Virus record (IMG/VR): IMGVR_UViG_3300006735_000180
Coordinates: 1 to 27,549 of that record
DNA: 27,549 nucleotides
Direction: 5' to 3' (one strand)
DNA from: a virus
Part shown: one piece after another, positions 1,163-25,831 of the stretch
Layout of the letters: each line of letters begins with the position of its first letter
How positions within the stretch are numbered: position 1 is the first letter of the stretch
Notes under the pieces: model-generated
The model's database searches: none
Told to the model about the DNA's origin: nothing
Seen by the model: only the letters and a program-made list of their open reading frames with translations
Program-made: the position numbers and the translations under genes

Positions 1163-4100
1163 TTATTTTATTTTTAGCTTTTTAATTTTTAATTTTTTAA
1201 TTTTAGTAGGTTGTAACTCATTTTTCTTTTTTATTAATTTTGTATTATCTTCTTCTATTTTTAAAGTCCATCCGTCCCAACCTAATAACAGCGCTAATTT
1301 TTGCCACAATTCAGTTTCTGAATCTACAATTCCTTTACCTTGTTCATACAATCTCATTGCCTGATCAAGAGGTATATTAGCTGTGGCTGATATAAATCTT
1401 GCAGCTGCCATTGTTGCGGGATTATCTAAACTAAGTCCCGATTCTTTTATTTCATCCATTTCATAATCAAATACAGAAAGTGCTTGTCTTATTTGTGTCA
1501 CCTTTCTATCTACGGGCGGCATAAAATCAAATAATTTCCATGCTGCATCCCCAAATTTAGGCCGAGGTCTACCTGCTCTTCTGGCTAAATCAACTGCAAC
1601 ATTTTTAGCCATTAAAATTATATTGCCATATACACCTGTACCTCTAATAACTGAATCAGCCATTCCCTCAGCAGTTTTTATAACCCTATCTCTTTCTTTT
1701 TCATCTTCTTCTTCTTCTCCAAATCCCATTGCAAATAGTGCTTGCTGCATTGCGTTGAATATAAAGTTTTGAACAAAACTATAATATATAAGCTTTGACC
1801 AATTAGTTCTAGGGTCACCACGTCCGTCTCGTATATCTTGAGCAGCTCTTTTCATAAGTCTGGCATACTGCATAGGTGTATTAGCAAAAGCTAAAACAAC
1901 TCTACCTAAATTACTTGCTTGCTGCATAGATATTTTATCAGGTCTACTAGATTGTTGTGTTTCTTCAGCTATTTCTCTAAAATCTTCAAAAGCTCTTTTA
2001 AAAGCAATATCTTGTTCTAATCCTTTATTAGTATATGTATTTGTTCTATTTCTAATAAAACTTGCGCCTCCTAATGCAATTGCAAAACTATCCGCATATC
2101 TTGTTAAAACAAAACCTTTACTTAGTAATAAACTTATAACACCACGCATTCCTCCTTTTTCAGCCTGCTCTACAAGTTCAGATTCGTTAATATTTATTTT
2201 CAAACCACCTCTTCTTTGAACTAAATAGTCTGAATTAAATAATCTCATAAAATCTCCCCAAAATTGTTTTTGATTAGAAAAAGCTTTACCAGCCTGTAAT
2301 AAATTATTATCACTCCAGTTTATAAAGTTTATGGTTGATATTGTTTGTAGAACAGCAGATTTTCTATTTAAGAACATAATAGTACCAACTGCATCATTAA
2401 GCCAATCTAACATAATGTTAATTTGCTTATTGTTACTAGGCTTTCTATTTCTACCAGTTTTCATTCTACGAAGAATATCTTCTAACGCTTCTCTATACTT
2501 TCTACCAAATAAAGCTTCAAGTTTATTTAAATTTTCTTCTGAAAATACCGTATCAGCATTTTTTTGCCATTGCTGAAGGTATTTTTCTCTTTTTGTTGTG
2601 TTTATACTTTGTTTTAAATCTGTTGATATAGTTCCAGATTCCCAATTATTATCAGGTTTTATATAGCCATCAGCTTTAGTAATTAATATTAAATTATCTG
2701 CAAAATCTTTAAAAGTTTTATCTTTTTTAATTAAGTTAACTAAGCTTGCTTCTTCTTCTTTACTTAAACCTGGGATTTGCATTTTTTGTTTATTCCATAT
2801 ATAAACCCTGACAGCATCGCCCATTGTGAAATCACCATCTAATACTTTTTCCTGTAATGGCGATTGTGCAAATATTCCAGCTTTTTTTGGTAATTTAGGT
2901 AATCTTAATTTTAATTCTGCAAAGTCAGCCATCATTGCTGATCTTTCTCTTTCAATATTTGCCATAGCTCTACCAAAAGGTCTGATTAAATTAATTCTAA
3001 CCCATTCTATAGCTTGGTCACCTTTAAATCCTTTAGGTAACAATGTGTACATTAGTCCTAAAAAGTCTTCTGCTCCCGGCGGTATAAATAAATTATATCT
3101 ACCTTTATTTTTGCCTCTTCTTCTGGCTCTTACTGCAGAATATTTAGTAGTTGATAATACGCCAGATTTATCTTCTAATATTGAATTAAATTCTAAATCC
3201 AAATTAGCTTCTTTACTAGGTAAAGTTCTAGGAGTACCATCTTTTTTTATGTTAAATTGTACCGAAAATGATTTTCCTTGTAATGTTTTATAGTTTTTTA
3301 TTGTAACACCGCCGTCAATTTTTGCAACCGCGCTATTAAAATGTCTTCTTGTCCAACTATCTTTCCATAAATTCCAGTTTCTACCCATACCAAATTTATA
3401 AAATTTAGTTTTACCTTCGTTATCTATATATGTAGCCGCATCAACTTTGTCAGCATCTTTTTTAGACATACCTATTAATACATAATTTTCTAAAACTTTA
3501 TCTAATAATTTTGTAAACGGTATTTCTTTTTTATTAATTCCACTTAACAATTCTTTCCAAGCTCTAAAACTTTGCATTGCATGTTCCATTATCATTTGCT
3601 CATTATTTGCAGCCGCTACTACGTCAAATCCCGCAAGCTTAGCCATTCTTCTATGCAAATGTGATTTATCTTTATAAGAATTAACCATAAAGTGTATCAT
3701 AGTTAAAAGTCTTTCGTTTTTCTGCGCTTGTGTAATATTAGGTTCATTTATAAATTCATTAATAGCTAACCATAAATGTATACCCGCATTAGTGTATCTA
3801 TCAGTAGTTTCTTCTAACCATTGTAAGCTTCTAGTTTTAAGATTTTTTTGATTAATAGGTGCGCCCTTATAATAATTTTTTTCAGCATCTTCACGCACTT
3901 GCTTTCTTGTTGCTGATTTACCATAAGAAAAATTCTTTTTACCAACCCAATTTTTAGAACCTGCTAGTAATTGTTGTTTAATTTCTTGAATTTGATCTTT
4001 AGTAATATAACCACCCATTTGTAATCCACTAGTGACAATACCAATATTTAATAAACCTGGGAATTTATCAAGGTATGGTAAAAAATCAATCATACCATTA

Positions 4101-7100
4101 GAATATCTTTTAGTATCGTCAGTAACATTATACCAAATATTTCCTAATCCCATTTTAAAAGCAAATTGTCTACTAGCCAAAGTTCTTTCTATTTTTCTAG
4201 CTGCTGTGGCCTGATCTTCAGTAGATAACGGCGATTGCTTTATTGCCGCTGGAGATAAGTTGAATGCAATTTCTTTGCCGAATTCCGCAAAAAGTTTATT
4301 TCTTCTTGCTCTTATAGTAGAATTAGGTTTCTTTTCACCATAACTATAATATTCTTTTAAAATTTCTAATGATGGTTTTAGCCTATCATATAAATCAACA
4401 CCTTGTGCTTCATTTTCAACAAAAGCATTTTTTTCATCTCTTGCTTTTCTAATCTCTTCTTGTGTTGTTAATCTTTTATTTAACTTAGCAAAATTTTTGT
4501 TTTCTAATTTTCTTTCTGCTTGATATAAATATTGTATTGATAATAACTTTTTCTTAGGGTCAAAAAGTTTATCTATATATTTATCAAAAAACTTTTCAAA
4601 ATTACCAGCCGCTTTTCTTATTTTAGGCATTACTGCATTTTCAAACAAATTTTTAATATTGTTTCTAAAATCAGCATCACTTGGATCAAAAGCTTGGTCT
4701 TCACCAAATATTTCATCAACAAAATCTTGTAAATCTTTTATATCATCTTCTGTGAGTATATCAATTTCGTCTTCCATTTTAGGATTAGAAGTATTTTCTA
4801 TGTTCTCACTAAGTATTTTAGCATCTATCATAGATTCTACATCCATTGAAGTTTCATCTAAAATATCAATTGTAGCACCAGCGTCTGTTTCAATAGATTG
4901 TGCTTTTGGTTTCTTTACATATTCTAATTTAACATCTTGAAATGCTCTAAATGCAATACCACCTAGTCCCTTGCTTTCTTTTTTACCATAAATATAACTA
5001 AATACACTTCTTTTATTTCCTTCTAATGTTGGATTAAAGTTTTTAAATATTCTTTCTGTAATTCTTTCTCTTACCTTTCTTTTAATATCTTCTTGCACCT
5101 CAGGTGCCAAACTACCAGTATTTTCATCTCTTTGTATTATGCTATTTATAACTGGGTCTATAATAAGATTACTTTCTATTTCTGTGTATATACCTGCTCT
5201 AGCAACATCACTGGCTTTAAAATCATCTTGTGTTTTTATATCTTCTGTAATATACTTATCTAATGCGTTCTGGCTAGCTTTTATTTGTTCGGAAGTTAAT
5301 TCAGCTTCTTTAGACGGTTTAGTTTTTTCTTCAATATCAACCTTGCCACTTTTTGCTACAGTTTTTGCAACATCATCAGCTGCTTCTAATACTGTTTTTG
5401 CAGATAAAGGTTTAACACCTGTAAAACTATTATATCTTTTTATTAATTCTAAAGCATTTTCTCCGCTAATTTCAAATGGTAAATTCTTTATATTTTTAGA
5501 ATAAGTTTTTGCGAACGCTTCTCCAAATTTATTAAACATGTTAGCTTGTTCAATATTTTCTAAGGCAGCTTGATTAGCTAAAACATCAGATAACCCTGAT
5601 AAATATTCATCTACAATATCATTATTTTTAAGATCAAATTTACCATATACAGATAACCTTTGTTTTAATAATTCATATGCAGCTACCATTTTAGGGTCTG
5701 TTGAATTAGAAAAATCTGTGTCTAAAGCTTGTATTATACTTGTTTTTTCATCTCTTGATAAAGATTCAAATATAAAGTGCATTACCTCATGATGTACAAC
5801 ATTGCCGGAGGTACTTCTACCATTATTAGTTTTAAATATATTGTTGTCAACATTTTCTTCAACAAATAAAGCTAAATCACCCTTCATAACTCCAGACGTG
5901 TACATACGCATACCAGATTCATTTACAGTGCCTTCTAACATGTCAATAACATTCTCGTCTGTCAAAAGGTCAGGTCTATTTTTTTCAAGCCATGCTTTCA
6001 ACTCAGCTCTAGTTTTACGCATTATACCTTGTTTACCCGCAAATACCCCAGTTTTATCTGAATTTATATATGATAATAAAGTTTTGCCTGTTGTATGAAA
6101 ATATTCCAAAAGTTTTGTATCAATTAATTGATTATCATAACTTTCAATTCTTTGTTTTTCATTTTCAATTTTAGCCTCAATTGAAATGCTATTATTTGTT
6201 TTAAATTCTTTTTCTAAACCAGTAAGATTAGATTGTGCATCTGCTTTTTCAATTTGTAAATCAAACATTTTTTTTCTACTTTCATAAGATAAATATCTAT
6301 AAGTAGAATTATTTGCTACATTCTCAGCAACATCTATATTTCTTAATATTTGGTCTTTTTCAGCTTGAGTTTTATTACTTTTCTTTACCTCTACTTTTAA
6401 CGCGTTTACTATTGCTCTTAAGCTTTCGGGATCTCTTAATGCTGTTAATTCAGCTATTCCCTCTCTAATAGCCATACTTGTACCTGTTATACTTACTTGT
6501 GTACCACTAGTACCTAATATTGTTTGAGCGGTTGTTTCTGCAATTAATTTTGCAGTTATAGGATTATCTAATGCTAATGCTGAATTTATTTCTTGGCTAT
6601 TTTCTGTAACAATTTCTGCTAATTGAGAATACCCAGTACCAATTAAAAAATCTTGCGCGTCTTGATTAACTTGACCTTTTAGTATACCCCTAAGAGCTGT
6701 TTTTGGCACAAATTTAGTCGCTTTACCTACTAAAAAAAGATTACTTGCATAATCCATGGCTGCGTTTTGTATACCTACTCTGTTAGCCTCATTAAGAGCA
6801 TCCACTGTTTTCCCATCTTGAATAGCGTTTAATACAGCATTAGCTTGTTGGTCTTTTGGTAAGTTTTGAAATGCTTCATATGTTAAACCTATTTCTTCAG
6901 CAGCAATCCTGTTAATTAATTCTGTTGCTACCGCTCCGCCTTCTTGAGTGTATGTTGTAAAACCAAAACTAACTAGGGCAGAAAGCATTTGTGGTATTTG
7001 TTCTGCAACTACACCAGTTGTTTTATCAAAAGTTAAATTAAAATCATCCCATAATTCATTATCTCCATCATCTTCAAATATATTTATTTTTTCATATCTA

Positions 7101-7633
7101 TCTAAATATTCTTGCATTTCTTTAGATTCAATAAAATTTTCTCTAAATATTTTACTATCTTTTTCAACTAAGTCTTCGTAATACTTTAAAGCATTTTCTC
7201 TGTCTACGCTTCGCCCACCTACAAAATTACCTTCTTTCATAAGATATACTCCACCTACACGAAAACTATTTATACTATCTGGAGTATTTTTAATTTTTCT
7301 TATCTGTCTTTCATTTTTTTCAATTCTTCTAGCAGCACTGTCTCTTAAAAAATCATCAGAAACACTTGACCCAATTTTTTTAAAAGCATTTACAAATCTT
7401 CTACCTAATGATGGTTTAATTTTTTCTTCTTTTGCTGGGGTTAGTTCAAGGGCTTTATTATAAAGAAATCTTTTTGAATTTTTAGGTGGTAACGCCCCGG
7501 TATATTTTTTATATAGGGCGTCTATTGCTTTAGTGGGGTCTTGTGTTAGTAGAAAAGAAATTTGCTTAGTTCTTAAGTCTTCTCCCATATTAGCATCGAA
7601 TTTTTGAAGTAATGCTTGGTATAGTTCTTCCAT
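1163..7633 (-). CDS. Giant putative internal virion (ejection) protein with HExxH motif (2156 aa)
   Basis: The protein is mostly charged and helical in character, with Ala/Ile-rich stretches near residues 205-400 and 1630-1990. Residues 614-619 read HHEVMH, a zinc-metallopeptidase-type HExxH with H615, E616 and H619, within VVHHEVMHFIFE. A third metal ligand is not obvious. Acidic coiled stretches lie near residues 760-1000, an EEEEDEKERDR patch lies near residue 1970, and the C-terminus is a KIKKL repeat. Such very large proteins at the end of podovirus-like virion operons are usually carried in the capsid and injected with the DNA (compare T7 gp16); here that is inferred from size, position and composition. 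The ATG follows the TAG of the 513-residue gene with no base between and in the same frame. A lytic-enzyme role for other segments cannot be excluded. Confidence 0.8.
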   Translation of the reverse strand: MEELYQALLQKFDANMGEDLRTKQISFLLTQDPTKAIDALYKKYTGALPPKNSKRFLYNKALELTPAKEEKIKPSLGRRFVNAFKKIGSSVSDDFLRDSAARRIEKNERQIRKIKNTPDSINSFRVGGVYLMKEGNFVGGRSVDRENALKYYEDLVEKDSKIFRENFIESKEMQEYLDRYEKINIFEDDGDNELWDDFNLTFDKTTGVVAEQIPQMLSALVSFGFTTYTQEGGAVATELINRIAAEEIGLTYEAFQNLPKDQQANAVLNAIQDGKTVDALNEANRVGIQNAAMDYASNLFLVGKATKFVPKTALRGILKGQVNQDAQDFLIGTGYSQLAEIVTENSQEINSALALDNPITAKLIAETTAQTILGTSGTQVSITGTSMAIREGIAELTALRDPESLRAIVNALKVEVKKSNKTQAEKDQILRNIDVAENVANNSTYRYLSYESRKKMFDLQIEKADAQSNLTGLEKEFKTNNSISIEAKIENEKQRIESYDNQLIDTKLLEYFHTTGKTLLSYINSDKTGVFAGKQGIMRKTRAELKAWLEKNRPDLLTDENVIDMLEGTVNESGMRMYTSGVMKGDLALFVEENVDNNIFKTNNGRSTSGNVVHHEVMHFIFESLSRDEKTSIIQALDTDFSNSTDPKMVAAYELLKQRLSVYGKFDLKNNDIVDEYLSGLSDVLANQAALENIEQANMFNKFGEAFAKTYSKNIKNLPFEISGENALELIKRYNSFTGVKPLSAKTVLEAADDVAKTVAKSGKVDIEEKTKPSKEAELTSEQIKASQNALDKYITEDIKTQDDFKASDVARAGIYTEIESNLIIDPVINSIIQRDENTGSLAPEVQEDIKRKVRERITERIFKNFNPTLEGNKRSVFSYIYGKKESKGLGGIAFRAFQDVKLEYVKKPKAQSIETDAGATIDILDETSMDVESMIDAKILSENIENTSNPKMEDEIDILTEDDIKDLQDFVDEIFGEDQAFDPSDADFRNNIKNLFENAVMPKIRKAAGNFEKFFDKYIDKLFDPKKKLLSIQYLYQAERKLENKNFAKLNKRLTTQEEIRKARDEKNAFVENEAQGVDLYDRLKPSLEILKEYYSYGEKKPNSTIRARRNKLFAEFGKEIAFNLSPAAIKQSPLSTEDQATAARKIERTLASRQFAFKMGLGNIWYNVTDDTKRYSNGMIDFLPYLDKFPGLLNIGIVTSGLQMGGYITKDQIQEIKQQLLAGSKNWVGKKNFSYGKSATRKQVREDAEKNYYKGAPINQKNLKTRSLQWLEETTDRYTNAGIHLWLAINEFINEPNITQAQKNERLLTMIHFMVNSYKDKSHLHRRMAKLAGFDVVAAANNEQMIMEHAMQSFRAWKELLSGINKKEIPFTKLLDKVLENYVLIGMSKKDADKVDAATYIDNEGKTKFYKFGMGRNWNLWKDSWTRRHFNSAVAKIDGGVTIKNYKTLQGKSFSVQFNIKKDGTPRTLPSKEANLDLEFNSILEDKSGVLSTTKYSAVRARRRGKNKGRYNLFIPPGAEDFLGLMYTLLPKGFKGDQAIEWVRINLIRPFGRAMANIERERSAMMADFAELKLRLPKLPKKAGIFAQSPLQEKVLDGDFTMGDAVRVYIWNKQKMQIPGLSKEEEASLVNLIKKDKTFKDFADNLILITKADGYIKPDNNWESGTISTDLKQSINTTKREKYLQQWQKNADTVFSEENLNKLEALFGRKYREALEDILRRMKTGRNRKPSNNKQINIMLDWLNDAVGTIMFLNRKSAVLQTISTINFINWSDNNLLQAGKAFSNQKQFWGDFMRLFNSDYLVQRRGGLKININESELVEQAEKGGMRGVISLLLSKGFVLTRYADSFAIALGGASFIRNRTNTYTNKGLEQDIAFKRAFEDFREIAEETQQSSRPDKISMQQASNLGRVVLAFANTPMQYARLMKRAAQDIRDGRGDPRTNWSKLIYYSFVQNFIFNAMQQALFAMGFGEEEEDEKERDRVIKTAEGMADSVIRGTGVYGNIILMAKNVAVDLARRAGRPRPKFGDAAWKLFDFMPPVDRKVTQIRQALSVFDYEMDEIKESGLSLDNPATMAAARFISATANIPLDQAMRLYEQGKGIVDSETELWQKLALLLGWDGWTLKIEEDNTKLIKKKNELQPTKIKKLKIKKLKIK
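1166..1204 (-). repeat. 15-base near-tandem repeat encoding KIKKL units
   Basis: The last 13 codons of the giant gene encode KIKKL, KIKKL, KIK from two imperfect 15-base A-rich units plus a partial third. This is probably slippage-prone low-complexity DNA giving a lysine-rich C-terminal tail. Confidence 0.7.
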
Positions 7634-9175
7634 CTAGTTATTATTTCCTTCGATGTTATTTAATCCGTCAATTATATCTTGTGTAACGTCAACTGGCTTT
7701 TTTAATCTAATTTCCTCTAATAATTCGCCTACATAGTCTTCACCTTCAAACCGCATGGTTTTTTGATTAAATCGACCTTTAGTTTTTATTTTTCCATCTG
7801 GCAATACAATACCTCCAAATGTACCTTCTTTTGCATTCATTATGTAATAATTTATAACTTCTGTATCCAATCCAGCTGTTTTTGCATATAACCTAAATAA
7901 ATCTTCTTGATTGTTTTGAGGAATAGATGTTTGATCATAAAATACACCTATCTGATCATCGCCATATGTTTCATTAAATAATTTTACTTTTTCTTCGCGA
8001 GGCAATTTTTGATAAGCTTTTGATGTCATGTCTACAGTTTTAGTATCTGTTTGTTGTTGAGCAGAATCCCAAGCTTTAAAGAGTTGATCTTTATCCATAA
8101 ATTTGCTAGCATTTTTAATATCTAATCTTTGTAAAGCTTGAACTCTTTCTTTTGCATTTAAAGGCTGTGTTGCAAAATTAATTGCATTTTGAATTGTAGG
8201 CATTGCTAAGTTAATTTTTTGCTGCATACTAGCTGTAAACTCACTTTCTCCGCCACTAGGCTTATATGCTGAATATCCAACTGAATTTTGTTCTATTAAA
8301 CCAGTCATTATTTTACTAACTATAATAGGTTTAAAATTAATAGGGTCTTCTTCATATTTTGCTCTTTCTTCATCACTAAAAACATCTTTAAATAAATCAT
8401 CATATAAAATTGATTTAATTCTATCGTCGCCTCCTTTATCTAGTTCAATTATTAAGTTTCTTTTTAAAGACTCAACTAATCCATTAAATTTATCATCATT
8501 TAAATTAATACCTTCTATTCCATCTTTAATTACACTCTTGTTTAATTTATCTAAATATTGTGAAAATTCGTCATCAGTTTCAAACCAATCAAAATCTTTT
8601 TTAGTAAATGAATAATTTTTACCATTATGTGTTGTATTGTATGTAGGATTACCAAAATTATCATATGTCATTGTATAATCCAGTTCATCGGGTAATAGTA
8701 TATTATCTAATGCACCTTTTTTGCCGGCATCGTAACCTTTAGATATTCTCAAATGGTTTTCAGAATATTCTTTTCTTTTAGCTTGAACCCAAAGTAAGTT
8801 ATCATTTGCATTTGAATATGATGCAGTTATATTATTTAATTCATTTTGTAAAGTTAAATATTCAGGTGTACCCGCAGGTACTTCTGCTAGCATATTACCT
8901 ATTTCAAAAGCTCTTTTCTTTTTATCAAAAGCCCATGGGGTTAAGGTTTCTCTTTGTATGCCATCTAATTTTGAAAAATTAATTTCTTCTGGAAATTTAT
9001 CAAGTATACCTCTAGCCCTAGCGTCGGCCGCTTCTCGCGCTATTCTATTTCCTTCAATTTGTTTTATTAAGTTATCAGTAGTTCTTTTTATACTTTTATC
9101 TATAGTATCTGATAGACCAGTATTAAAACCGCCTGCCGCAAGTCTTGCTCCTAATATTAAGTTTTTATCTGCCAT
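7634..9175 (-). CDS. Putative internal virion protein (513 aa)
   Basis: This is a mostly helical, charged protein with no signal peptide or membrane segment. The N-terminus (MADKNLILGARLAAGGFNTG) is Gly/Ala-rich. It is followed by a coiled-coil-like stretch (residues 24-58: IDKSIKRTTDNLIKQIEGN then IAREAADARARG), then alternating helical and aromatic segments. I do not recognise a catalytic motif. It lies between a small Ala/Gly-rich protein and the giant HExxH protein, the same relative place as T7 gp15 between gp14 and gp16, so an ejection or inner-core role is inferred. It starts one base after the 233-residue gene ends. It ends with TAG, one of only three non-TAA stops in the window, immediately followed by the ATG of the giant gene in the same frame. 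A minor structural role elsewhere in the virion is the alternative. Confidence 0.75.
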   Translation of the reverse strand: MADKNLILGARLAAGGFNTGLSDTIDKSIKRTTDNLIKQIEGNRIAREAADARARGILDKFPEEINFSKLDGIQRETLTPWAFDKKKRAFEIGNMLAEVPAGTPEYLTLQNELNNITASYSNANDNLLWVQAKRKEYSENHLRISKGYDAGKKGALDNILLPDELDYTMTYDNFGNPTYNTTHNGKNYSFTKKDFDWFETDDEFSQYLDKLNKSVIKDGIEGINLNDDKFNGLVESLKRNLIIELDKGGDDRIKSILYDDLFKDVFSDEERAKYEEDPINFKPIIVSKIMTGLIEQNSVGYSAYKPSGGESEFTASMQQKINLAMPTIQNAINFATQPLNAKERVQALQRLDIKNASKFMDKDQLFKAWDSAQQQTDTKTVDMTSKAYQKLPREEKVKLFNETYGDDQIGVFYDQTSIPQNNQEDLFRLYAKTAGLDTEVINYYIMNAKEGTFGGIVLPDGKIKTKGRFNQKTMRFEGEDYVGELLEEIRLKKPVDVTQDIIDGLNNIEGNNN

Positions 9176-9176
9176 A

Positions 9177-9878
9177 TTATGTAGGTTTTAAAATTCCTGA
9201 TTGCGCTACACCAGCCGCACCACCGGCCATATCTGTTAATCCACCAACTAATTGATTTGTTGCGTCTTTTCTTGCCTGGTCTGCTGCTGCTTTTCTTTGC
9301 TGCGCCATTCCAAGTAAAGTACTTTGTTTTTCATAAGCCATTTTTTGAGACTGTGCTTCTCCACCTGCAATAGCCATTTGTCTTGATTGCTCACCTTGAG
9401 CACCTAATTGTGCATTTCTTTGTTCTTGCTGAGCTATACTTGCTGAAGCAGCTTGAGCTTGCTGGTTTTGACTATTTGCCATTGCCTGCGCTAATGCAGC
9501 AACCCCTCCGCCCCCTGCCGAAGCAGCCATACTACTCATAATATTTGCAGCTCCCTGTGCGCTTTGTTGTGCCGCAAAATCTGCTGCTTGAGTATTAACA
9601 GTTAAATTTGTATAAGGATTAGTTATGTTTTTATATGGATTAGATGTATCTAAATCTCTAAATGCTTGTTTTTCTTGTTTTAGTTCTCTAGCCGCTCTTC
9701 TTTGTTCACGTCTTCTTTTACCACCTCCAAATAAACTAGCACCAAATTTTATAAGACCGCCTACTGCTTGACCAGCTGCTTGTATACCCGCAGCAGCTAC
9801 CATTGGTGCGATTGCCCAGCTTGCTCCTCCCGTAGGTGCTTCTATTATTAATTTTGATATTTCTACTATACTTTCCAT
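9177..9878 (-). CDS. Small Ala/Gln-rich putative internal virion protein (233 aa)
   Basis: Residues 19-52 form a long Ala/Gly/Ile stretch (ASWAIAPMVAAAGIQAAGQ and on to FGASLFGGG) that could insert in or lie along a membrane. A basic patch KRRREQRRAARELKQEK follows. A tandem SNPYKNITNPYTNLTV element lies near residues 78-94. The second half is a low-complexity Ala/Gln/Ser helix with a poly-Gly break (AGGGGVAALAQAMAN). This architecture recurs in podovirus-like phages of Bacteroidota as I remember them, and matches the role of T7 gp14, which forms part of the DNA ejection channel. That role is inferred, not shown. A 30-base AT-only gap separates it from the 1590-residue gene, and the next gene starts one base after its TAA. 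Confidence 0.75.
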   Translation of the reverse strand: MESIVEISKLIIEAPTGGASWAIAPMVAAAGIQAAGQAVGGLIKFGASLFGGGKRRREQRRAARELKQEKQAFRDLDTSNPYKNITNPYTNLTVNTQAADFAAQQSAQGAANIMSSMAASAGGGGVAALAQAMANSQNQQAQAASASIAQQEQRNAQLGAQGEQSRQMAIAGGEAQSQKMAYEKQSTLLGMAQQRKAAADQARKDATNQLVGGLTDMAGGAAGVAQSGILKPT

Positions 9879-9908: not shown

Positions 9909-12900
9909 TTAACTACTTATACTAATTTCACTTCCAACAGCATATATTTCTTTAACCGTGCTTGCTGTATTTCGCATCTTTACAACTGCATGATAACCTA
10001 ATAAACCACTTGTTTGCCATTTTGCTTGTTTTACATAAAATATAAAATAAGTTGGATAAGATGGCGGAGATGCTGTTGTTGAAAAATTAGCAGTAACCTC
10101 GGTTGATGTGATTGCTGTTACAGGACCTATTCTAGTATTAACACCTGTGCTTGGGTGAACATAATACAAATCGTCATCTATTTGTAAATCCTCAGGAACT
10201 GCATTCGCAAAAGTATATTTTCTTAAATTTGTACCAGCACTAACATTACTACCCCAGTCGCCTATACCTTGTACATTTAATGCTTTTAAATCAATTGTAG
10301 TAGCTGTTTCTGAACCTCCTCTTATGTAGTTAAAATATTTATTTTCTTTATTTATAAATGAATCTACAGCTCCGTCCTGCTGATCACTAGTTATGCTAGG
10401 GCATGTCCATCCAGAATCCCCTTCATAATTTAATGTTCTAAAATTTTTCATATTAGCAGGGGCTTCATTCAAAATAACCTCCACATATGGTGTTTCTTTT
10501 GAACCATAAAAATTACAAACATCTCCAACATGATGTTCATATATATGACCATTTTTAAAAGTAAAATATTTATTTTGTATACTTTCTGCAGCTTCAGGTA
10601 TAAAGGACTTTTTACTAGTCCATCCATTTATTGATTCAGAAAAAGAAATAGTACTGTTTGCATTTGTAGGGTGAGTGCTAATATTATACTGATGTTTTCT
10701 AATATCATAAGAACCCACCATATATCCAGTATTTGCCGGTAATGCGTCTCTAAAAAAATCTTTCATACCATAATCTGATATAGCTTCCATGCCATCCATA
10801 GAATGCCTAACTACTACTCCATTTTTTCTATCTGTAAAATATGCCCTATGTGTATAAAAAGCGAAGCTTTCTGGATTTTTACTTATACCATAATTAGAAT
10901 TATAAGGCATTGCTTGCCCTAAAACTGCTTTATTAGATGTAACATTAACATTACCGTCAGCATTAAATAATGCGTCTTTATTAGTTAATATTTTTACAAC
11001 TTTATTTTCACAATAAGCAATTATATCATTATATCTAGTATGTAATAACTGTATACTACCATAATCTGGATTAATTTCTTTAGTAATAGCTTCAGCAATA
11101 ATAAATTGGTTTAATCTATTTAACCCGTTTTTATTATTATATATTTGAGAAAATATTAAATTATTTTTATGATTTTCTTCTATATATGGCTTATCTTCAA
11201 AGACAGTAGACACTCTAACACCTTTTCCTAATGAAGCGCCATTAAAAGTATCTCTAATTGACATAGATTCTATACCGTTTGAAAAACAAAAACAATTATA
11301 ATAAGATAATATATTAACATTACCATGATCATTTGTACCATCAGATGCTATTGTAAAAACTTCTTGTGTTTCAAAATATATATCAATGTCAACATCATCC
11401 TTAGGTAATACTTCAAATATAGGTGGCTCTGGAATACCTATTAACTGATCTTCTTTTCTAAACTCAAGAACTGATATTTGCATTACCTGCTCCCCATTAA
11501 AATTACTACTACTTTCAGCTGCTTCATTTTGACCATTAAAAACTAAATTTTGGGCTAATTGTTTATCTAGCTTTATTAAATAAACAGCATCTCCATCGTT
11601 AAATTGCGAAGGTACATTTGATTTTCTTTCAAGATACTTAAATACTCTTTGTACTTTATATATATTATTATCCGCCGCTTGGCCTGCTGCTATTTGATCT
11701 CTTGATCTATCAAATTTTAAGTAAACAGGGTTATCCCCATTGTAATTATTTTTATTAGACGGGGCTTTTTCTAAGCCAGTAACCAAAGGGAGCGTTGCAT
11801 ATTTTGATTCTTTATTGGCATATGGTAAATCTGTTCTTATGCAAAAATGATACCCTTTGTCTAATTCTGTTTCACTAATAAAATCTCTTGAAGGATTAAA
11901 AGATTGACCATCAGTTGCAGTTGAACCACCCGCGTGATTTGTGTCACCTCTAAAGCCGCCCTGCATTGGTGTTTTTGGGTTAGAACCTCCAATTCTTGTT
12001 ATAGACGAGTCGCTATTTGCCAAGCCGCCGCCATACATATGAAATTGTCTTGGGTCGTTATCAGTTTGATTACCATCTAAAGATATTGTACTTAATACTT
12101 GTAAATTGTTTAAATCTTCTTCACCTTTTAACTCCGCTAATAAGCTGGTGTTATTTCTTATTTTTATAAAAAATTTACCTTGATATTCTTCTTTACCGCT
12201 TTCGTCAACTGTATCAACTATAACCATTTTTACCCCGCCGCCATAACTACCAGATGTAATATTTAAAGACGCATCTCCACCAACTATTGTAGCTCCACCA
12301 CTTAAATCACCAGAAGGGTTGAGCAGTTTATCTCTATCAAAATCGTCATAAAGAATTTTTACATCATCTCCAAATTCTTGAGTAAAATGTAATTCAAAAT
12401 CATTATCATCAGCTAAATCTAATTCTTTATTTGATATTGTGTAAACATCAGTTTCCCCCGAACCAGTAACAAATTTTACTTTTGTGCCAGGATTTAAAAG
12501 AGTATATGCTTCTTTACTTACCCCGTCTTTGGTATCATTATCAATTCTCCCATTGTTATGAATATTAGTTTCTAGAATCTTGTACATTGCATTAACAGTT
12601 ATTCTATTTCTGCCTGGAACAGGAGATGACCCGGGTTTTAGTACATGCAAGTCTTTATCTTGTTCAAGATTTTTACCAAACACAAATACATCTGGAACAT
12701 ATATTTCTTTTAAAGGTTTAGCTAAAAATGGAGGTGGGGTGGTATATTTATCTAATACTTTAAATTCTTCTTTAATATCTGAAATATTATTACCTCTTTT
12801 CTTTTTAAGTATTATTTTATCGTCAACATCTACTTTGTTAACATCTGCAGATGGTATTGCAACATATATAAACCCTTCTTTATCTTGATAAAAACTATCA

Positions 12901-14681
12901 CCTATAAAGTTATGTGTTTTAGATGATATTTCTTTTATAAAATATTTATAAGTTTTTGCGAATGAAGGTGGGTTGGAAGTTATAGCTGTTTTAAATCTAG
13001 TTGAAAAAGAAGCTCCTTCTTGCCCAACTTTTACAATACCTGTTTTGCTTGTTAACACAGGTGTTTGCCTACCAAACTCATCCATGTAAACAACACCAAA
13101 TTGATATGTTCTTTTTGACTTTATAGATTGTCTTTCTTTTTTAACATCATCATAATTTGAATCAGTAGGATTGTATCTATTATGTATACCTACTGAAAAT
13201 ACAGGCTCTACATTTGCCGGAGGATTACTAGAATCTTTTAAATTAAAGTTTTCAGTATAATTACCATATATTAATCTGTTTGCTGTAATTTCTTGTGCTT
13301 TAGCTTTTCTAGGTACACTATCAAATAATCTTAATAATTGATTTGATGGTAAAGTTTTAAATATTTGATCATCTTTTACTTCAAATTCTAAAGGGCTTGG
13401 AAAAGCATTGCTAGAATTTCTTTTAATAGTATCAACTAAATAGCAGTTTGTGCCTACAGAATCTTTATATAGTATATCTATTTCTTCAACATCAGCATGT
13501 ATATTATGATTTAAATTTTTTAGTTTTAGCAGCCTCAGGCTATTAACCATTGCTAAATTTTGACCCGCTTTTGTATCATATTCTACACCTGTATTTCCAA
13601 GGCCGGGATTAGATTCATCTATTAATGGTCCAACTGTAGGGTCAGGTAAAAACGCCGCATTAGAAAACGGAGAAAAGCAAGAATATTGCCCATTATTGTA
13701 TTTATATCTATAAGCAAACCTGGGAAATTTTTCTTGAAATAACGGATCATCTTCCTCCAGTATACATGTATAAGGTACGGCACCGCCTGGAGCCTTTTCA
13801 GATAAAGTTAATATTGTAGCTGTATACGTTCCAACACTACCGCCAGTTTGAGAGCTATTATAAGTAGTTAATTCTATTCTAGCTTTAATAGTTTTCACAG
13901 TGTCATCGGATTGTGTAAAAGAATGTGTTAGTACAATTACGTCTCCAACTTGATAATTAGGATTTACAGAACTACCTGCCACTAAAAATTTACTAAAATC
14001 TTGACCTGTATTATTAAATGAAGTTCCAGTGTCTATAGAGGGTACTAAATTACCAACACTTGCAGTTGACCCAAAATCAGCCTGCATAATTACAGTGCCA
14101 CCACCATCTCCCGCAGTGCCCAAACCGCCTCTTGCTGAACTGCTCATATCTAAAGTTGGCGCAGCTAATGGAGATTTTTTAATAACAGTTATTCTTTCTG
14201 CACTTAATCCAGAGCTGGTTCCCGCAGATCCAGAAGTTTGACCTCTCCAATATTCAATATCTACTTGTCTTGGTTCATTTAAATTATCTGTAAAAAATAA
14301 AATACCATCAATAACATTTGCCCCAGTTATAAAATAATCCGTATTAAAATTTAATATATTACTTTGGTCAACTAATATTGTATCGTATGTGTTTGCTTGA
14401 TAATCCCACTCTGCTATTAAATCTTTTGCTGATGATGTAATAAACCAATATATTTTATTATTTTCAATATCTTTTACGGTACCAATACATTTTGCATTAG
14501 ATAAACTTATTGTATCTCTTTGAGTATTACCTAAAATACTTTTTAATGCTCCAACGTCGCTACCTTCTGAAAAGTCAACATCAACATTTACAGCGTCTCT
14601 ATATTCACCATTAGGAATCAATCTTTCATCAAGGTCTTTATTCATTTTACCTTGTATAAAAGCATTTTTAATTTCTGGCAT
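9909..14681 (-). CDS. Large tail protein, crAss-like muzzle/stabilisation type (1590 aa)
   Basis: The N-terminus (residues 5-32) reads KNAFIQGKMNKDLDERLIPN then GEYRDAVNVDV. I recognise this as a hallmark of large tail proteins in crAss-like and many uncultured marine podovirus-like phages. The rest is long, beta-rich and low in cysteine, with many Gly/Asn/Asp turns. Repeated strand-loop patterns in the last third (for example AFYTHRAYFTDRKNGVVVRH) would fit a propeller or beta-sandwich assembly. In crAss-like virions a protein of this kind forms the distal muzzle or tail tube; the assignment here rests on recalled N-terminal similarity, length and place after two connector genes. It starts three bases after the 368-residue gene. 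There is no evident enzyme motif. Confidence in the gene is high, in the exact tail role moderate. Confidence 0.85.
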   Translation of the reverse strand: MPEIKNAFIQGKMNKDLDERLIPNGEYRDAVNVDVDFSEGSDVGALKSILGNTQRDTISLSNAKCIGTVKDIENNKIYWFITSSAKDLIAEWDYQANTYDTILVDQSNILNFNTDYFITGANVIDGILFFTDNLNEPRQVDIEYWRGQTSGSAGTSSGLSAERITVIKKSPLAAPTLDMSSSARGGLGTAGDGGGTVIMQADFGSTASVGNLVPSIDTGTSFNNTGQDFSKFLVAGSSVNPNYQVGDVIVLTHSFTQSDDTVKTIKARIELTTYNSSQTGGSVGTYTATILTLSEKAPGGAVPYTCILEEDDPLFQEKFPRFAYRYKYNNGQYSCFSPFSNAAFLPDPTVGPLIDESNPGLGNTGVEYDTKAGQNLAMVNSLRLLKLKNLNHNIHADVEEIDILYKDSVGTNCYLVDTIKRNSSNAFPSPLEFEVKDDQIFKTLPSNQLLRLFDSVPRKAKAQEITANRLIYGNYTENFNLKDSSNPPANVEPVFSVGIHNRYNPTDSNYDDVKKERQSIKSKRTYQFGVVYMDEFGRQTPVLTSKTGIVKVGQEGASFSTRFKTAITSNPPSFAKTYKYFIKEISSKTHNFIGDSFYQDKEGFIYVAIPSADVNKVDVDDKIILKKKRGNNISDIKEEFKVLDKYTTPPPFLAKPLKEIYVPDVFVFGKNLEQDKDLHVLKPGSSPVPGRNRITVNAMYKILETNIHNNGRIDNDTKDGVSKEAYTLLNPGTKVKFVTGSGETDVYTISNKELDLADDNDFELHFTQEFGDDVKILYDDFDRDKLLNPSGDLSGGATIVGGDASLNITSGSYGGGVKMVIVDTVDESGKEEYQGKFFIKIRNNTSLLAELKGEEDLNNLQVLSTISLDGNQTDNDPRQFHMYGGGLANSDSSITRIGGSNPKTPMQGGFRGDTNHAGGSTATDGQSFNPSRDFISETELDKGYHFCIRTDLPYANKESKYATLPLVTGLEKAPSNKNNYNGDNPVYLKFDRSRDQIAAGQAADNNIYKVQRVFKYLERKSNVPSQFNDGDAVYLIKLDKQLAQNLVFNGQNEAAESSSNFNGEQVMQISVLEFRKEDQLIGIPEPPIFEVLPKDDVDIDIYFETQEVFTIASDGTNDHGNVNILSYYNCFCFSNGIESMSIRDTFNGASLGKGVRVSTVFEDKPYIEENHKNNLIFSQIYNNKNGLNRLNQFIIAEAITKEINPDYGSIQLLHTRYNDIIAYCENKVVKILTNKDALFNADGNVNVTSNKAVLGQAMPYNSNYGISKNPESFAFYTHRAYFTDRKNGVVVRHSMDGMEAISDYGMKDFFRDALPANTGYMVGSYDIRKHQYNISTHPTNANSTISFSESINGWTSKKSFIPEAAESIQNKYFTFKNGHIYEHHVGDVCNFYGSKETPYVEVILNEAPANMKNFRTLNYEGDSGWTCPSITSDQQDGAVDSFINKENKYFNYIRGGSETATTIDLKALNVQGIGDWGSNVSAGTNLRKYTFANAVPEDLQIDDDLYYVHPSTGVNTRIGPVTAITSTEVTANFSTTASPPSYPTYFIFYVKQAKWQTSGLLGYHAVVKMRNTASTVKEIYAVGSEISISS

Positions 14682-25063: not shown

Positions 25064-25604
25064 ACTTAATAGATATTGAATTAGTTAATACTCTATACAA
25101 TCTTTCACCGTTAACAATAAATTCATATTCACTGCTCGGTGTAAATCCAACTAAATCTTCTTTATTTATATCTTTAAGTTCTTTATCAACATATTTGATA
25201 ATACCTCTTAATGGAACTTCTTTTTCTAATAATATATTATTTGATTCAATTGGTTTAATAAAACAATAACCTTTTGGTGCATGCCACTCGTTATTTCTTT
25301 TATATAAAAATATTTGGTCTGACTTAACAAAATATTTATTATCCTCCCAATAACTTCTGCTATTTTGTTCTACACCCCTAACATCGTACCATCTTCTAAA
25401 AACATTATGATGTACAATAACTTCATCACCTGTTTTAATTTCGGTATTTTCTAGCTTAGGAGTTGATAAAACCACACCAACACGACTTACATATCGATGA
25501 TCAGATATTTCTGAATTTAATATCAGCTCTTTATCATCGATTTGTTTTATATTGTCGTATCTTTTATTTTTTGGTTTGATTATAAAGTCAAAAACACTAC
25601 GCAT
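25017..25604 (-). CDS. Putative tandem GroES-like co-chaperonin (195 aa)
   Basis: Two segments fit the GroES pattern. The first, residues about 22-103, has RVGVVLSTP, then IKTGDEVIVHHN, then YFVKSDQIFLY, matching the GroES order rGxV, vkxGDxVif, sesDIlai. The second, residues about 111-182, has KGYCFIKPIESNNILLEKEV, then LRGIIKYVD, INKEDLVGFTP and LYRVLTNSISI. NNILLEKEV sits where GroES has its mobile loop GGIVL tripeptide. GroES itself has about 97 residues, so 195 suits two fused domains. Phage co-chaperonins such as T4 gp31 help host GroEL fold the capsid protein, and the gene lies just upstream of the head genes. The match is by eye. The start overlaps the previous stop (TAATG); the stop is TAG, with TAA two codons later. 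Confidence 0.6.
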   Translation of the reverse strand: MRSVFDFIIKPKNKRYDNIKQIDDKELILNSEISDHRYVSRVGVVLSTPKLENTEIKTGDEVIVHHNVFRRWYDVRGVEQNSRSYWEDNKYFVKSDQIFLYKRNNEWHAPKGYCFIKPIESNNILLEKEVPLRGIIKYVDKELKDINKEDLVGFTPSSEYEFIVNGERLYRVLTNSISIKYERQGNEKEYNPSWT

Positions 25605-25831
25605 TAATATTCTAAATTATATTCAACTGCAACAGCCATATTCTTATTAAAATCTTTCCAAGGTAAAACCTCGTTTCTTTTTTTAATAAAAATAGAAAAT
25701 TTATTATCTTCTTCAATAATTGAATCTATTATATGACCACCGTAAACTTCTTGTCCAACGGAGTAGTGCATTGCATCGTTCTTATAATCTCTGCCTATAC
25801 TAATCTTCCTTATTAGGCTCATCTTCTTCAA
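25604..25831 (-). CDS. Hypothetical protein (75 aa)
   Basis: I do not recognise a named family. The N-terminus is basic (MKKMSLIRKISIGRDYKNDA). The remainder has a beta-like pattern, VGQEVYGGHIIDSIIEEDNK then FSIFIKKRNEVLPWKDFN. This may be a small beta-barrel or SH3-like fold, but that is only an impression. Two in-frame Met codons (residues 1 and 4) could serve as start; both lie within the previous gene, which it overlaps by up to 32 bases. Its TAA overlaps the ATG of the GroES-like gene by one base (TAATG), so the two are probably co-translated. It belongs to the compact cluster of small genes preceding the terminase; a morphogenesis role is inferred from position only. Confidence 0.65.
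   Translation of the reverse strand: MKKMSLIRKISIGRDYKNDAMHYSVGQEVYGGHIIDSIIEEDNKFSIFIKKRNEVLPWKDFNKNMAVAVEYNLEY

What the first reader, a model, noticed from the sequence alone, without database searches (positions are those of the whole stretch)
7631..7636. Zero-spacing in-frame TAG-ATG junction between two virion genes
The 513-residue gene ends TAG and the 2156-residue gene starts ATG on the very next base in the same frame. TAG is one of only three non-TAA stops seen. Reading through it would give a single protein of about 2670 residues. Options are recent gene fission, stop-start reinitiation, or programmed read-through. Some crAss-like phages recode TAG, but other genes here are full length without internal TAG, so global recoding is unlikely.
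Basis: partly seen in the sequence, partly recalled or inferred. Interest (0 to 1): 0.5.

Follow-up and report, generated by a model that had tools for sequence, protein, structure and literature searches.

The report
Ordinary abutting stop-start between phage genes
In a probably marine phage related to flavobacterial crAss-like phages, one gene stops on TAG and the next begins on the very next base, which looks like a hidden fused gene, but relatives keep two separate genes with varying, often out-of-frame spacing, so this is an ordinary tight gene junction.

Summary
In detail: on the minus strand TAG (7636-7634) is followed directly, in frame, by ATG (7633-7631), joining a 513-aa and a 2156-aa gene. 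It is nevertheless ordinary. In 81 relatives' junctions tallied, each giant gene has a separate upstream ORF; gaps run from -1 to +30 nt, 23 of 81 are in frame and 4 of 81 are exactly zero. Among the seven sequences (window included) in which both genes are clear homologues, the junction is TAG|ATG (3), TAA|ATG (2), TAG+10 nt (1, out of frame) and a 1-nt TAATG overlap (1, out of frame). In the last two, read-through adds only 8 and 4 residues. The downstream start Met is conserved; the upstream C-terminal tail is not. The cultured Tenacibaculum phage Gundel_1 has the same gene order with a 1-nt overlap. No TAG recoding, no suppressor tRNA in ten (probably partial) records and no unusual RNA fold were found. 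Best reading: two separate proteins, probably virion cargo/ejection proteins, in a tightly packed operon. The second gene starts at an A-rich Bacteroidota-type site, probably helped by termination-reinitiation. Recent fission and programmed read-through are not supported.

The parts
7634..9175 (-). upstream gene, 513 aa, stop TAG at 7636-7634; probably a virion cargo/ejection-type protein (inferred)
   Evidence: homologues in 9 IMG/VR contigs; low-confidence, mostly helical model, pLDDT 68, pTM 0.41
7631..7636 (-). zero-gap in-frame stop-start junction TAG|ATG
7637..7649 (-). A-rich stretch before the ATG (A at -13, -12, -11 and -6), inside the end of the upstream gene; resembles the Bacteroidota translation initiation region
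   Evidence: window and 80 relatives' starts; PMC6847099 passages
1163..7633 (-). downstream giant gene, 2156 aa, with one HExxH motif at residues 615-619
9177..9878 (-). 233-aa gene just upstream, 1 nt before the 513-aa gene
9909..14681 (-). 1590-aa muzzle-like protein (Pfam crAss_MUZ_C)

Best explanation
The junction is an ordinary tight boundary between two same-strand virion-module genes that make two separate proteins. The ribosome ends the 513-aa protein at TAG. The 2156-aa protein is started as a separate product at the adjacent ATG, through an A-rich initiation region that lies inside the last codons of the upstream gene, probably with help from ribosomes that have just terminated (termination-reinitiation coupling; I put coupling itself at about 0.65). 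Shown: the geometry, the two-gene state in the relatives examined, the variable spacing and frame, the conserved start Met, the A-rich leader. Inferred: coupling, co-transcription, and the role of both proteins as virion cargo.
For: In 81 relatives' junctions tallied the giant has a separate upstream ORF; gaps -1 to +30, 56 of 81 within -8 to +10 nt, 21 at 11-20, 4 above 20. Seven sequences with both genes clearly homologous: TAG|ATG x3 (window included), TAA|ATG x2, TAG+10, TAATG -1. The giant starts with MEE in all seven, while the C-terminal tails of the upstream proteins align poorly. The 513-aa protein hit 0 of 80 giants and the giant's first 600 residues hit 0 of 80 upstream genes at E 1e-3. 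Tenacibaculum phage Gundel_1 has a 511-aa gene and a giant 'structural protein' gene sharing 1 nt. Before the start in 80 relatives A is at -12 in 65, at -11 in 62 and at -3 in 54; the window has A at -13 to -11 and at -6, matching F. johnsoniae determinants (PMC6847099, passages). Pairs at -8 to +10 nt were taken as predictive of coupling in PMC10666635 (passages).
Against: No expression data. The window start has T at -3 (forced by the stop codon), unfavourable by the F. johnsoniae rule. The two nearest contigs share TAG|ATG, so a function restricted to that small clade is not excluded. Five of the seven fully homologous sequences, window included, have a zero gap, more than the 4 of 81 overall; shared descent would explain this but I did not test it on a tree. 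The passages read on Flavobacterium do not treat reinitiation (0 occurrences in PMC6847099).
Confidence: 0.92

Rival explanations
1. Programmed TAG read-through yields a small amount of a 2670-aa fusion besides the 513-aa protein.
For: Zero-gap, in-frame TAG|ATG kept in the window and both nearest contigs.
Against: TAA in two next relatives and out-of-frame junctions in two others. Retention of TAG in three sequences is uninformative: fourfold sites differ by only 17-26% in the three comparisons. No unusual RNA fold, z -0.54 and -1.13. No suppressor tRNA found, in records that are probably partial.
Confidence: 0.03
2. Recent fission of one ancestral ~2670-aa gene by a nonsense mutation before an internal Met.
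For: A nonsense mutation before a Met codon would give exactly this geometry.
Against: A separate upstream ORF in the 81 relatives tallied; no trace of the 513-aa protein in 80 giants. For most of these the upstream gene is paired by position, not by homology.
Confidence: 0.01
3. The same two separate proteins, but the giant gene is started independently, with no coupling to the upstream gene. This differs from the best explanation only in the coupling step.
For: A-rich Bacteroidota-type initiation region present; 4 of 81 relatives have gaps of 25-30 nt, too long for efficient coupling by PMC10666635.
Against: 56 of 81 junctions lie in the range where coupling is expected.
Confidence: 0.3
4. 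The phage recodes TAG as glutamine, as some gut crAss-like phages do.
For: Known in crAss-like phages, mostly in late genes (PMC7886860, passages).
Against: Coding density 97.7% under the standard code; TerL, portal and capsid proteins match families nearly end to end although their ORFs were called with TAG as a stop.
Confidence: 0.01

Closest known systems
Overlapping or closely spaced gene pairs with termination-reinitiation coupling (PMC10666635, passages; review PMC12548453, passages)
   Same: Same-strand genes at a distance inside -8 to +10 nt
   Different: Distance 0 rather than the commonest -4 or -1; coupling not measured here; the likely host group does not use Shine-Dalgarno sequences
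Tenacibaculum phage Gundel_1 (Pachyviridae), gp072-gp073-gp074
   Same: Same gene order and sizes: 225-aa virion structural protein, 511-aa protein, giant 2482-aa structural protein; a 511-aa Gundel_1 protein was also a weak fold match of the 513-aa model
   Different: Junction is a 1-nt overlap, out of frame; no sequence match of the two window proteins to any of 50,697 phage records
Virion cargo genes of crassvirus PhicrAss001: gp45, gp46, gp47, gp49, gp50 (PMC10172136, passages)
   Same: Mid-size protein (gp46, 60 kDa) beside a giant one (gp47, 262 kDa) in a phage with a muzzle protein
   Different: No match to any solved structure; gp47 is RNA-polymerase-associated, for which nothing was found here; correspondence is by size and order only

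Membership tests
Termination-reinitiation coupled gene pair | intergenic distance -8 to +10 nt, same strand | tested here: met
   gap 0; 56 of 81 relatives also in range
Termination-reinitiation coupled gene pair | downstream translation depends on translation of the upstream gene | not testable with these tools
   needs a reporter assay
Programmed stop-codon read-through | in-frame extension kept across relatives | tested here: not met
   extensions of only 8 and 4 aa in L022 and L023
Programmed stop-codon read-through | downstream RNA structure or conserved stop context | tested here: not met
   z -0.54 and -1.13; stop codon varies TAG/TAA among close relatives
Split (fission) gene | fused homologue in relatives | tested here: not met
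   0 of 80 giants match the 513-aa protein
TAG-recoded crAss-like phage | in-frame TAG inside TerL, portal, capsid genes | tested here: not met
TAG-recoded crAss-like phage | suppressor tRNA | tested here: inconclusive
   10 records searched, one tRNA, anticodon CAT; records are probably partial
crAss-like phage | muzzle protein C-terminal domain | tested here: met
   PF25729 E 8.1e-07, 29.8 bits against cut-off 27
crAss-like phage | placement in the order Crassvirales by a phylogeny of signature genes | not tested
   no tree was built; the related cultured phage Gundel_1 is filed under Pachyviridae

The most novel reading that the evidence does not exclude
In the small clade of the window and its two nearest contigs, a minor fraction of ribosomes reads through TAG and a 2670-aa fusion is packaged as a rare virion component.
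Probability: 0.02. Interest if true: 0.45.

Novelty: already known. Interest (0 to 1): 0.08.

Why it matters
It closes a lead that looked like read-through or gene fission. It also gives a small worked example: an exact in-frame stop-start abutment turned up at 4 of 81 homologous or same-position junctions, so such a case should be judged against relatives before a fusion is proposed.

Tried and rejected
Rejected: TAG recoding, conserved read-through, recent fission, RNA structure at the junction, informative conservation of the stop codon.

Led nowhere: genome-contig scan with the giant profile, 112 pattern matches and no relative; tblastn of both proteins against 50,697 phage records, no match at E 1e-5 (giant) and 1e-2 (513 aa); search of solved structures with both profiles, no match at E 0.1; Pfam on five giants, none at E 0.01, and PHROGs one weak hit, E 0.0078, in one of five. 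Foldseek of the low-confidence 513-aa model (pLDDT 68, pTM 0.41): no PDB match at E 0.001; in the viral library one match at E 3.4e-4 (probability 1.00, TM 0.29, unnamed protein) and a weak one to a 511-aa protein of Tenacibaculum phage Gundel_1 (E 0.66, probability 0.72, TM 0.30); with such a model these are leads only. Profile comparison of the 513-aa family with the wider relatives' upstream genes, and with the genes at the same position in one Flavobacterium phage and one uncultured phage, showed no homology, so beyond the close relatives the pairing rests on position.

Few synonymous changes were seen in about 20 codons either side of the stop, but stretches with none occur elsewhere in the gene. 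The usual constraint at gene starts could explain it; no test was run.

Full report
What is there. On the minus strand the 513-aa ORF (9175..7634) ends in TAG and the 2156-aa ORF (7633..1163) starts with ATG on the next base, in the same frame. In the 18 genes counted the stops are 15 TAA, 3 TAG and no TGA. The 17 distances between neighbouring genes in transcription order are 1, 66, 195, -47, -1, 1, 33, 13, 71, 56, 3, 3, 30, 1, 0, 140 and -17, so a distance of 0 belongs to the ordinary packing of this operon.

Where it lies. The 1590-aa gene two positions upstream carries the crassvirus muzzle C-terminal domain (PF25729, E 8.1e-07). TerL, portal and capsid proteins match PHROGs families nearly end to end. 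TerL matches 87 phage records: 68 of Flavobacterium phages, 15 Cellulophaga, 2 Tenacibaculum, 1 Maribacter and 1 uncultured. The window is a 27,549-base virus record, by these matches a crAss-like phage whose host is probably a flavobacterium (inferred; no tree was built). The 233-aa, 513-aa and 2156-aa genes follow the muzzle gene. In PhicrAss001 virions the cargo proteins detected are gp45, gp46 (60 kDa), gp47 (262 kDa), gp49 and gp50 (PMC10172136, passages). The cultured Tenacibaculum phage Gundel_1 (Pachyviridae) has a 225-aa virion structural protein, a 511-aa protein and a giant structural protein of 2482 aa in a row, the last two sharing one base. The likeness in size and order suggests cargo or ejection proteins, but no sequence match and no solved structure supports it.

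Relatives. Scans of viral contigs gave relatives of the upstream protein in 5, then 7, then 9 loci, of the whole giant in 10 loci and of its N-terminal 600 residues in 7. In one search I examined 86 loci: those 80 plus six; the other loci lie in contigs already included. Six had no 5' side in the contig, leaving 80 junctions. For the tally I dropped L085 (no intact neighbour gene found; nearest ORF 230 nt away) and replaced L029, whose giant gene is itself split, by the junction before its first half. I then added L100 and L110, giving 81. Some contigs are near copies of each other: 78 of these junctions hold 72 distinct 90-nt sequences, and many more are related, so 81 is not a number of independent events.

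Result. In each of the 81 the giant has a separate upstream ORF. Gaps range from -1 to +30 nt; 4 are 0 (L019, L020, L021, L100), 23 are in frame, 56 lie between -8 and +10, 21 between 11 and 20, 4 above 20. Of the 80 junction stops, 72 are TAA, 7 TAG and 1 TGA; the TGA is the split inside the L029 giant gene. The 513-aa protein has no match in any of the 80 giants, and the giant's first 600 residues have none in the 80 upstream genes, at E 1e-3. The upstream gene is a detectable homologue of the 513-aa protein by blastp in 8 of those 80 and in L100. A profile that already contained the same contig also found L026. For the rest the pairing is by position and size only (367 to 788 codons from stop to stop, L085 and L029 apart), since profile comparison found no homology. 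In two annotated phage records the genes at the same position are 32 nt (L017, uncultured) and 27 nt (L018, Flavobacterium phage) apart (coordinates), also without detectable homology.

The decisive subset is the seven sequences, window included, in which the upstream protein and the giant's N-terminal 600 residues are both homologous. The giant starts with MEE in all seven. The junction is TAG|ATG in the window, L019 and L020; TAA|ATG in L021 and L100; TAG plus 10 nt in L022; and a 1-nt overlap TAATG in L023. Continuing past the stop gives the whole giant in the first five, but 8 residues in L022 and 4 in L023. The C-terminal tails of the upstream proteins align poorly across these seven, apart from the window and its two nearest contigs. 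A conserved start after an unconserved end, with a frame that drifts, is what two separate proteins give. Five zero gaps in seven is more than the 4 of 81 overall; inheritance from a common ancestor is the simplest reason, but I built no tree. L110, a more distant relative with a TAG stop, has a 2-nt gap and a 2-residue extension. Being in frame proves little: L004 and L026 are also in frame, but with TAA and 6 or 3 nt between.

Signals of read-through. Between the window and its two nearest contigs fourfold sites differ by 17% and 26%, and by 23% between the two, so a stop codon that stays TAG in all three is not evidence of selection. The 103 bases from the TAG onward and the 101 bases around it fold about as shuffles do: 64 and 27 of 200 shuffles fold at least as well (z -0.54 and -1.13). 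ARAGORN found no tRNA in the window. Of ten records searched with the Rfam tRNA model, window included, one has a match, a tRNA-Met; ARAGORN on 24 loci found none. These records are probably partial, so a suppressor elsewhere is not excluded. With ORFs called under the standard code 97.7% of the window is coding and the 383 glutamine codons are CAA or CAG; internal TAG is absent by the way ORFs are called, so the weight lies on the density and on the full-length matches of TerL, portal and capsid proteins. TAG or TGA reassignment in gut crAss-like phages, mostly in late genes, is reported (PMC7886860, passages) but is not seen here.

How it probably works. Before the giant's start, 80 relatives' sequences show A at -12 in 65, at -11 in 62 and at -3 in 54. 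F. johnsoniae initiation is favoured by A at -3, -6, -12 and -13 (PMC6847099, passages). The window has A at -13, -12, -11 and -6 but T at -3, which the stop codon forces. So the giant has its own initiation region, lying inside the last codons of the upstream gene. In E. coli and Haloferax, pairs spaced -8 to +10 nt were treated as coupled, and about 20 nt nearly abolished coupling (PMC10666635, passages). By that yardstick coupling is likely here, but it was not tested.

Verdict. Interest is low. A minor read-through product confined to the window and its two nearest contigs cannot be excluded by sequence and is put at 2%.

Noticed in passing
L029:3220-12067 (contig IMGVR_UViG_3300025120_000051); same in L010:2220-11067: The giant gene is split into 1978-aa and 968-aa ORFs in different frames, the first ending TGA 4 nt before the second's ATG (32-nt overlap of open frames). 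They align to residues 1-2030 and 2002-2951 of one intact giant (L061), so this is a true fission or an assembly frameshift.
   Followed up: partly
window 1163-7633, residues 615-619 of the giant: A single HExxH motif (HEVMH), aligned and invariant in five giants; the motif occurs in 64 of 80 giants, some incomplete, and in 0 of 200 shuffles of the window protein. It suggests a zincin-like metallopeptidase domain (recalled), though no Pfam family matched.
   Followed up: partly
giant gene N-terminus, window 7633, L004:10423, L009:5179: Relatives with a homologous C-terminal part carry a different N-terminal start (MEE-type against MPDYKFDG or MSKIYKYKG-type), and length runs from 1887 to 3432 aa among giants complete at both ends, the split L029 apart: apparent domain swapping at the start of the gene.
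   Followed up: no
window 25604-25831: A TTG-start 75-aa ORF fills the largest gap (195 nt) of the operon and overlaps the neighbouring gene; may be a small gene or nothing.
   Followed up: no
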